From: Cloeon dipterum
Taxonomy: Eukaryota > Arthropoda > Insecta > Ephemeroptera > Baetidae
Assembly (NCBI RefSeq): GCF_949628265.1
Contig: NC_088788.1
Span: 32,970,335 to 33,034,334, forward strand
Reading direction: 5' to 3'
Length of the DNA stretch: 64,000 bases
Shown: piece by piece, positions 54,790 through 59,404 of the stretch
Layout of the letters: each line of letters starts with the position of its first letter
How positions within the stretch are numbered: the first letter of the stretch is position 1
Made by a program: the position numbers and the translations under genes
Notes under the pieces: generated by a model
The model's input: only the letters and a program-made list of their open reading frames with translations
Database searches by the model: none
What the model was told of the DNA's origin: nothing

Positions 54790-56295
54790 ATGCACTCTAC
54801 TCCGGTAACACTTCTGATTCTGCTCTTGGTAAGTATGGTTTGTTTAATTTAAATACAATATTTGCTCAATTAATTAGAATTTATTTATCTTGTCAGATTT
54901 TATAGTGAATTTAAACATTTGAATTACATAGGTTTGATAGAATTAAATTGTTAGCACGACCCCAAAATTCAATCCCCTATTATCATAATTAAATCCACCT
55001 ATCACATAAATTTCAGTTCGCTCAAATTTCATCATTAATAGAGAGAAAGAAAACAACTGTTATTAGTTTCTGTTGAATCTAGACGAAGCACAAATTCCCT
55101 TCATATACACGTTGCCCCTTTTTAATTCATGGGGCAGCGTTTAGGATTGCTGTCACATTTTGAGTAATCCTAACCGAGGATCACTCTTACTTGATTTAAT
55201 TTTGATTTCAAGAAAAAATGTCAACATAGACATAACTGAAGTCATTGGTCATTATTATTTGACAATCCCCTCACGCCACAGGCCGAAGTGCATAAAAAGG
55301 ACATAAAATTAATTAATATTGTTGAAAATAACGTGATATGAACATTAAATTTGTTTCTGTTAGAATGAATATAAAACTAAAATTTAAATGACCACATTAA
55401 CTTAAGTTTTCAGTAAGAGTCTAGTGTCAAAGTCTTATAGAATATTTTTTTGACCTCAAACGATATTCCATAATTGTTCACTTACTAACCAACGCGAGAT
55501 AGCCAAAATCGAGGAAATAAATATTTTCCATAACGCAGAACTTACAAATTTAAATCAATATCTAATTGCGAGTCCACAAATACCAGTAACAATGTTTCAC
55601 TCAACCCCTGCAGCAGAAAGTAATCAGCTCCCCATCACATTTAAGGCTTTCTAATAAATAAATAATAATAAAATATAAAAGTGTAAAGTAATGTTCTTTT
55701 TTCCATTGAAAACGCTGACTCAGCAGTTTGCTTATGACCCATTTCCTTATCGCTTTCCATAGCAGTTGAAGCAAAGATAATTTCCGTGATAATTATTTTG
55801 CAGGCTACGTTGCACGTTGGCAGCGGGCAGGTGCAGGACGACTTGGCCCTGGCCGAGACTCGCGCACACGGCTACTTCAAGGGCTATGGGTTCGGAGAGT
55901 TTGGCTTCAAAGACCACGACGAGGGGGCGAGGCAAGAAGAAAAGCAGGTCAGCTTTCCTGTGGACAAAAAGCCAGCTGAGAAACAGGAAAGGGACAACAC
56001 CAGGGAGGAGGCGGACAAAGGCGACGAAGAGCAGCAAAAGAAGCTGTTTGAGGCTTTCAGGGATTTCTACTACAAGGCCAAGAAGCAGGACGAGGAGCAA
56101 AACGTAAAGCTGGAGTCTGCCAAACCGAAAAAGGAACAACAAGAGAATGAGAAGAAGAAAGAGGAGCCAAAGCAAGCCATCAGTTACGCTTACTCGACCA
56201 TCGAGCATAACCGCTTCTTCAAAAAGGGAGCTGAGAGGAAGGCAGAGCAGCGTTCGGATGATCAGGATTACTACTATTACATCAGACAGTACTGA
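54790..56295 (+). CDS. small secreted Lys/Glu/Gln-rich protein
   Basis: Two coding exons: 54790-54828 (13 codons) and 55804-56295, total 176 aa. The join is phase 0 and completes a signal peptide (MHSTPVTLLILLLATLHVGSG). The mature protein starts with a Gly/Phe/Tyr segment (ETRAHGYFKGYGFGEFGFKD), then about 90 residues dominated by Lys, Glu and Gln (for example KKEQQENEKKKEEPKQ) that could form charged helix. It ends with a Tyr-rich tail (DDQDYYYYIRQY). There are no cysteines in the mature part. Signal peptide, low complexity and Tyr-rich ends suggest a secreted structural or adhesive component. No known family is recognised and the function is not assigned. The coding sense is supported by the TATA box, donor GTAAGT and acceptor TTTTGCAG. 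An ATTAAA at 56301-56306 just past the stop is a possible but very close polyadenylation signal. Confidence 0.8.
54829..55803. other. intron of the Lys/Glu-rich secreted-protein gene
   Basis: A 975-bp AT-rich intron bounded by GTAAGT and TTTTGCAG. No internal feature is recognised. Confidence 0.65.
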
Positions 56296-57021: not shown

Positions 57022-59404
57022 TTAAATTCCATTTGGCATGAGAGCATCGTGCATGGCGTACTTCCAGGTCCAGTTGCGGGCCATCAGCTCAAACGCCTTT
57101 TTGTCGTGCAGATAGAGCTCACCAATTTTAGGCTCCATGCACACCTTTTCGCGACAACATTAAATACAAGTTCCAGAAAAAAAATTGGAGAGCACACACC
57201 TGGCAGAAAGGATCAGTCAAAAGGCTCTGCACGGATATGAGAACTTTAACGACAGTCATGGCCAAGGACCAGTTGTGATGTATAAGGTCGATGCCAACGT
57301 CACCATGCCGAGACACGTTTGGGTGGAAAATCTTGGTGATGAATCGCACCAAAGGAGGGTGCATTGGATAGCTGCAAGAAATAATACATGCAACTTAATT
57401 AAAATAGACACAATTGCTAAAATAATGATAATTTATGGTTGTTTCAGTTACGGGGAACTATTTCTCCCAATGAACTAACCATGATGAGGTTATGTATTAC
57501 ATTTTTTTAATTTATGAAGTATTCACTGACATTAAATTCCTTTAATTTAAAATCCAACAAAACGTAATAAAAAAATAATTACATAAATAGGAAATAAATA
57601 CAGAATTAGCAGATGCTTTATTGGTAAAAAAATGCTATAATTTATTGTTATTCACAAATAATCTGTGCAAAAATTGTTCCTGCAGTCATTATTGTCCGTG
57701 TTTATAAATTCAAAAAGGAGAAAAATAACCAAAGAGAATCTTCTTACCTGTTGTGCACCTGCAGATACAAATAAAATATGCCTCCAGAATAAGGGGAGCC
57801 CTGCGGGCCGAGAATGGAAGCGATCCAGTGGAAACAGCCGCTGTCCAGCGGAATAGCCTGAATTCCTTCTTGAGGATCTTGACGCATTGCTGAAATAAAC
57901 AGACATATAAATTAGAATTCGGTAACCAAAAAATTGCTCAACATTACCTTTTATTTCAGATCTTATTCGTTTGATCCGCCACGTGTTTTCATTTCCACTG
58001 GGTTGACACTGCGCAGACATCTGCTGCAGGCACAGCTGGCACGGGGCACTGATAACCCTGTAACAAGTTTCTTACAATTAGTCGCAATCAGTTGGGCCAA
58101 AACTGTACACTCATTACAGTTTCTTGAACGTGGCTGGCCAGTTGTTGACCTCAAAAAGGGGCGTGAACAGAGGCCAGCGATTCTCAGTGTAAATTTTCCA
58201 CTGTTTGTTGTTGGCACTGGCCTCTAGAAGTCTCCTCCACCTGAGACACACGTCACTCGCGGCACACAGGGACAAGTCGTCCAGGTAGTTGAACACGACC
58301 ATCAGAACTGTAACACAAGTTGGGCAAAAATTAGTAAAGAAATAGAAAATCACTTCTTTGGACGTAAGAAAAAAATAACAAAAATAAAGCTACAAGACAT
58401 CTGGAAGTTGAGAAATTTTTAAAACATTATCTCAAGCCGTAAATGAGTCATTGGATAATTTCCAGAAAGTAATAAATCAATTCAGGGATATCTCTCATTG
58501 GATACTACACAATATCAATAATTTAGTCAAATCACTTTGAAAGCAAGCTTTAACAAAAATAAAATAAATTATCTGGAATACCTTCAGTAGGCAGCTTGTC
58601 AATGAGACCATTTGCGCTCATTTTAAGATACTCTGGGAACCTTGGGGCAGATAACAATTCAAGTCTTTCGGCCAGTCTATCAGCAGGTCTGAAAATGTAG
58701 AAATTTTTGAGACCCAATTAAAAATCACAACTGCAGAGTTTGCAACAATCATAAAATAGTCGTTAACTCAAACTTCTCGTTTTCCTCCTTATACACTGAG
58801 CGCTCTATTCAACCGAGAACGAGAAGTGTGTGTATTCGAGAGAATTGTGATTTTTCCAAAGTGTTTACGGTGGTGGTGGTGGTGGTGGAGGAGCTTCACC
58901 CTCCTCTTCCTCCTCCTCTCTGCGCGTAGAATCCAAGTAAGCTTTGAAGCTGACTCGTCGTTTGTCCAAGTTGCTGTAGAAACAAGTCGGATCATTTGGC
59001 TCGTCGTTTCCTGAATCACCGTCATCTTTAACCTGAACATTAATTTATTATTGTTTTTCATGTGGACTGTCAAAGGCTATGAAGAGTGCGGGCTTACATT
59101 ACTGTCCCACATGGCCATGGACTGCGGTTTGTCAAGGTCATCGGGGTAAAGAAATACATGGCAAGTGGCGCAGATAGGCTCTCCAAAACAAGGTCCGTAA
59201 TATCCGGAACACACCGAGCACGCCTCATGTTGAAGCTGCAATTTACATAATTTAATTAAAATTAAATCATTTTTCAAATAATAAGGCATGTACCAAGAAA
59301 GAAAAGTTCTCTTCAAGCTCATCTGTCAATGATTTCAAGTCTTCCACGTCGTTGACAGAGTCAAGCATGGACGTGACCTGCGTTTCTAGATTATTGCAAG
59401 CCAT
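57022..59404 (-). CDS. morgue: Morgue-like protein: zinc finger, F-box and inactive E2 variant
   Basis: In Drosophila, Morgue enhances Reaper/Grim-induced death and promotes DIAP1 turnover. Minus-strand exons: 59294-59404, 59098-59235, 58869-59032, 58582-58688, 58118-58307, 57948-58057, 57748-57889, 57200-57371, 57022-57144, total 418 aa with all junctions in phase. Domains: a coiled head; a zinc finger with Cys43, Cys46, Cys59 and Cys62 plus nearby Cys53 and His63; an acidic stretch ending in seven or more prolines (near 130-139); an F-box at about 166-205 (LIDKLPTEVLMVVFNYLDDL); and a C-terminal UBC fold from about 275. In the UBC domain HPN is kept (337-339) but the catalytic cysteine position is Gly347 (GDVGIDLI where active E2s have GxICLDIL). 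The ending WTWKYAMHD fits the terminal UBC helix. It is shorter than the fly protein (491 aa), mainly in linkers. It lies head-to-head with PCNA. Confidence 0.93.

What the first reader, a model, noticed from the sequence alone, without database searches (positions are those of the whole stretch)
57022..59404. Morgue-type fusion of zinc finger, F-box and catalytically dead E2
One nine-exon gene joins an N-terminal Cys-rich zinc finger, an F-box and a UBC fold in which the catalytic cysteine position is glycine (Gly347) while the HPN motif is kept. Seen directly: all domains and the Cys-to-Gly change at GDVGIDLI. Known: Drosophila Morgue has this same architecture and a Gly at the same position. 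Inference: the loss of E2 activity is old and selected, so the UBC domain probably acts as a ubiquitin-binding or scaffold surface. The acidic plus polyproline linker between finger and F-box is a further local feature.
Basis: partly seen in the sequence, partly recalled or inferred. Interest (0 to 1): 0.7.

Follow-up and report, generated by a model that had tools for sequence, protein, structure and literature searches.

The report
Ordinary Morgue gene with dead E2
The gene is a clean copy of Morgue, an already described invertebrate protein that joins a zinc finger, an F-box and an inactive ubiquitin-conjugating domain whose active-site cysteine is a glycine; it is a new member of a known family, not a new kind of protein.

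Summary
A nine-exon minus-strand model (59404 to 57022, 8 GT-AG introns) gives 418 aa. It has a C-x2-C-x12-C-x2-C finger (43-62), an F-box (167-201) and a UBC fold (267-403). Gly347 sits at the catalytic-cysteine position; HPN is kept. Its parts are found once in its genome. Of 30 fetched UBC matches there, 23 cover that position: 21 Cys, 1 Gly (this gene), 1 Thr (exon-end artefact).

This is the published definition of Morgue: same domain order, same finger spacing, and a Gly that 'no other UEV' has (PMC3787007). Fly Morgue binds SkpA and K48 polyubiquitin; changing its Gly to Cys, Ala or Ser did not remove the over-expression phenotypes.

What I add is modest: the UBC aligns without a gap to the genome's own UBE2D-type E2 (54 of 137 identical), and positions recalled as E3/E1 contacts or gate loop are changed too. 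Two cysteines (377, 380) in that loop leave a small, untested loophole. Ordinary member; low interest.

The parts
57022..59404 (-). Morgue-type gene, CDS of nine exons: 59404-59294, 59235-59098, 59032-58869, 58688-58582, 58307-58118, 58057-57948, 57889-57748, 57371-57200, 57144-57022
   Evidence: frame, splice sites; GC contrast
59161..59220 (-). C4 zinc finger, residues 43-62, C-x2-C-x12-C-x2-C
   Evidence: motif definition in PMC3787007
58869..58918 (-). acidic run (E122-E127) followed by a nine-proline run (131-139) between finger and F-box; the DNA holds two short trinucleotide tracts; the last proline codons run over the exon 3/4 junction into 58688-58685
58225..58603 (-). F-box, residues 167-201, split by intron 4
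   Evidence: weak PDB matches (best E 0.003), nearly all F-box proteins
57070..57969 (-). UBC (E2-variant) domain, residues 267-403, exons 6-9
57293..57295 (-). codon of Gly347 at the catalytic cysteine position (C85 of UBE2D, numbering recalled)
57203..57205 (-). codon of Cys377, aligned with P115 of UBE2D (numbering and 'gate loop' recalled)
57139..57141 (-). codon of Cys380, aligned with P118 of UBE2D (numbering and 'gate loop' recalled)

Best explanation
The gene is this animal's member of the Morgue family, most likely its orthologue. Shown here: the architecture, the finger spacing, the Gly at the catalytic site, and that its parts occur once in the genome. Inferred from the fly protein: the F-box docks on Skp1 (SkpA), so the protein can serve as receptor subunit of an SCF-type ligase; the finger and the UBC fold act as non-covalent ubiquitin-binding surfaces that hold K48-linked chains near the ligase, steering proteins that already carry ubiquitin to the proteasome or presenting chains for extension. 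Inferred from sequence: the UBC domain came from a Ubc4/UBE2D-like E2 that lost its cysteine and probably several E1/E3 contacts. The confidence given is for the identity; for the mechanism I would say about 0.5.
For: Exon model and Gly347. UQ_con and F-box above cut-offs. Finger spacing equal to the published Morgue motif. Best PDB matches are E2s, in the 60 shown of 304 mostly named E2 D1-D3, E2 4 and similar. Ungapped to the genome's own E2D, 54 of 137 identical, which scored highest of 32 sequences compared, many of them only single exons. Cys at this position in 21 of 23 fetched matches that cover it, Gly only here; no Gly in the two best frames of 11 further stretches. Substitutions at positions recalled as E3/E1 contacts (F62 to Met, P95 to Leu, K8 to Ser) and gate loop (D117 to Val, L119 to Met), with N77 and D87 kept. 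In fly: SkpA and K48 polyubiquitin co-purify, and both halves bind chains.
Against: In fly, deleting the F-box left over-expression lethality almost intact (non-balancer to balancer ratio 2.7% in one line, 0% in the other, against 50% and 25% if fully viable), so the SCF role is not what those assays measure. Substituting the Gly had little effect there. No Morgue sequence of another species was available here to align, and no tree was built. Binding in this animal is untested. The finger rests on spacing alone.
Confidence: 0.9

Rival explanations
1. The UBC domain acts like Mms2/UEV1: it pairs with an active E2 and orients the acceptor ubiquitin, so that the protein helps to build chains rather than only to hold them. 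(Compatible with being Morgue; a rival on mechanism.)
For: The domain lacks the cysteine but keeps HPN. The fly paper discusses a possible E2/UEV conjugase complex and an E4-like role.
Against: By sequence it is UBE2D-like: score 307 against the genome's E2D (137 aa), against 55 and 53 for 43-residue stretches of two loci that I label UEV-like (lengths unequal, so indicative only). I know of no E2 partner and searched for none.
Confidence: 0.12
2. The UBC domain is still catalytic through another cysteine: Cys380 or Cys377 in the loop next to the active-site groove.
For: Both align with positions 115 and 118 of UBE2D, beside recalled active-site neighbours D117 and L119; N77 and D87 are kept.
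Against: Positions recalled as E1/E3 contacts and gate are changed. I recall no E2 that uses this loop for the thioester. Whether the two cysteines are conserved in other Morgues is not known here. Distances were not measured.
Confidence: 0.03
3. Two neighbouring genes, an F-box/zinc-finger gene and a separate E2 variant, were fused by the gene model.
For: No RNA evidence was available.
Against: The frame runs on through nine exons with canonical splice sites; the exon 5-6 intron is only 60 nt, and exon 5 read on without the splice stops at once (ORF 58114-58389). The order equals that of Morgue.
Confidence: 0.02

Closest known systems
Drosophila Morgue (Zhou 2013, PMC3787007, sections read; Wing 2002 and Hays 2002 seen only as reference entries)
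   Same: Zinc finger, F-box, UBC order; CX2CX12CX2C; Gly at the E2 active site (Gly421 in fly, Gly347 here).
   Different: Gly is at residue 347 here against 421 in fly.
Active UBE2D/Ubc4-type E2
   Same: Whole UBC fold, 54 of 137 identical to the genome's own E2D, HPN and D87 kept.
   Different: Cys to Gly; positions F62, P95, K8, D117, L119 changed; part of an F-box protein.
Ubiquitin E2 variants Mms2/UEV1 and TSG101
   Same: No catalytic cysteine.
   Different: No Gly at the site according to PMC3787007; the sequence here is closer to an active E2D (indicative); no F-box (recalled).

Membership tests
Morgue | C4 zinc finger CX2CX12CX2C at the N-terminus | tested here: met
   Cys 43, 46, 59, 62; motif
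Morgue | central F-box | tested here: met
   PF12937 167-201 E 3.6e-9, PF00646 E 1.7e-6, both over cut-off
Morgue | five conserved tryptophans in the F-box (typical) | tested here: inconclusive
   W197, 210, 218, 230 and, further on, W263; the published alignment (Zhou 2009) is not held
Morgue | C-terminal UBC fold with Gly for the catalytic Cys | tested here: met
   UQ_con E 7e-38; Gly347
Morgue | binding of Skp1 and K48 polyubiquitin | not testable with these tools
   shown for the fly protein only
Active E2 enzyme | catalytic cysteine at the conserved position | tested here: not met
   Gly347
UEV of Mms2/TSG101 type | closest relatives among Mms2/TSG101 | tested here: inconclusive
   the 60 best of 304 PDB matches show no Mms2 or TSG101 name and the own-genome E2D scores highest of 32, but the UEV-like stretches compared were short and no tree was built

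The most novel reading that the evidence does not exclude
The E2 domain is not dead: the nucleophile has moved from the catalytic position to Cys380 (or Cys377) in the gate loop, so the protein is a single-chain F-box/E2 that charges ubiquitin at a displaced site.
Probability: 0.03. Interest if true: 0.75.

Novelty: new member of a known kind. Interest (0 to 1): 0.2.

Why it matters
It is one more clean Morgue, with an intact domain set and the signature glycine, in an animal whose species I could not name. That slightly strengthens the view that an F-box fused to an inactive E2 is an old and kept design. It would matter more if the gate-loop cysteines proved to be conserved or reactive.

Tried and rejected
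A search of IMG/VR for relatives found none (6 stretches matched a pattern, none confirmed). The phylogenetic paper on Morgue (Zhou 2009) is not held, so no cross-species residue alignment was made. Structure prediction and fold search were not run: the protein is spliced from nine exons and is not given letter for letter by the window's DNA, which structure prediction requires; it was not sent. The N-terminal region gave 18 weak PDB matches (best E 0.092), 16 of them putidaredoxins and other ferredoxins and 2 others; I take them for chance matches of Cys-rich sequence.

A guess that the host is the mayfly Cloeon dipterum (190 Mb in 10 contigs, five of them 33-43 Mb; the karyotype recalled) could not be tested: the paper searches and the passages of PMC11491810 gave nothing decisive, and I make no claim. 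No paper of the held library contains both 'morgue' and 'mayfly'.

One search read minus-strand matches on the wrong strand and is replaced. In one search, 7 of 30 loci do not cover the catalytic position, and the Thr at L010 is an artefact: the frame runs past the exon end, and the next exon at the same place (L023) gives Cys. Of the 45 UBC rows, 30 came as loci, 7 more were read through, and 8 were not fetched because by their profile range they do not reach that position (one of these is an exon of this gene). Of the 11 stretches, read (two best frames shown for each): Cys in the best frame in L039 and L043; Cys in the second frame, on the same strand, in L040, L042 and L045; Ser in the best frame of L035 (UEV-like, my label; its second frame gives a low-scoring Cys that I discount); Leu in L038 (unidentified; its low-scoring second frame on the other strand gives Val); L036, L041 and L044 not covered; L037 covered only by a low-scoring match on the wrong strand, discounted. 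No Gly among those shown.

Full report
What is there. Exons have GC 0.42-0.52 and introns 0.19-0.38. The weakest junction is the acceptor of intron 8, but reading into that intron loses the E2 C-terminus that the spliced form keeps.

Domains. The finger is C43-x2-C46-x12-C59-x2-C62; no Pfam family matches that region at E up to 10. Then come an acidic run (E122-127) and nine prolines (131-139), encoded by short trinucleotide tracts. The F-box is at 167-201 (E 3.6e-9) and the UBC fold at 267-403 (E 7e-38). In the PDB, 304 sequences match at E up to 0.001; the 60 shown match the UBC part and are mostly named E2 D1-D3, E2 4 and similar. Four of the five printed alignments are ungapped and the fifth has an insertion only at its N-terminal end.

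The active site. IFHPNVSRHGDVGIDLI puts Gly347 under the catalytic Cys, with HPN and the following Asp kept. In the same genome, 23 of 30 fetched UBC matches cover this position: 21 Cys, one Gly (this gene), one Thr that is an exon-end artefact. Eleven further stretches, some overlapping the first set, showed no Gly; two of them show another residue than Cys in their best frame, Ser in a UEV-like locus and Leu in an unidentified one. So lack of Cys is not unique to this gene in the genome, but Gly is, as far as these reads go. Searches with three pieces of the protein find only this gene at E up to 0.001 (the two rows are its exons 2 and 3).

More than one change. Against the genome's own E2D (54 of 137 identical, no gap) the positions that I recall as RING/E1 contacts are changed (F62 to Met, P95 to Leu, K8 to Ser), as are the recalled gate-loop positions D117 (Val) and L119 (Met); N77 and D87 are kept, and so are R5, W93, S94 and A96. 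The recalled backside position S22 is Gln. The domain looks remodelled for a non-catalytic role, but this is inference from one sequence and recalled residue roles.

What is known. Of PMC3787007 I read the abstract and outline, the Introduction, the Discussion and three Results sections; of PMC9502492, passages. [quoted passage not shown] Fly Morgue binds SkpA and K48 polyubiquitin, the latter through both halves. Over-expression lethality was reduced by loss of the finger or the UEV domain, hardly by loss of the F-box, and not by changing Gly421, although the Discussion adds that this differs from effects of Gly421x over-expression in the eye. The review says that over-expression protects flies from arrhythmicity in constant light.

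Verdict. It is a new member of a known kind.

Noticed in passing
window 60245 onward, + strand: PCNA gene, divergent from the Morgue gene with 840 bases between the two start codons (PCNA_N E 1e-37 for the first exon); possibly a shared promoter region.
   Followed up: partly
window 58057-57948, - strand (residues 243-254): A second Cys cluster, C243-x2-C246-x7-C254, between F-box and UBC fold; only three cysteines, so a second metal site is doubtful.
   Followed up: no
window 55738-56295, + strand: Open frame with a Lys/Glu-rich part and a Tyr-rich end, perhaps the last exon of a neighbouring gene.
   Followed up: no
L010 and L023 (same place in the own genome): An E2 gene whose exon ends just before the catalytic Cys, so a six-frame read gives a false residue there.
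   Followed up: yes
L038: E2-like stretch with Leu at the catalytic position; not identified.
   Followed up: no
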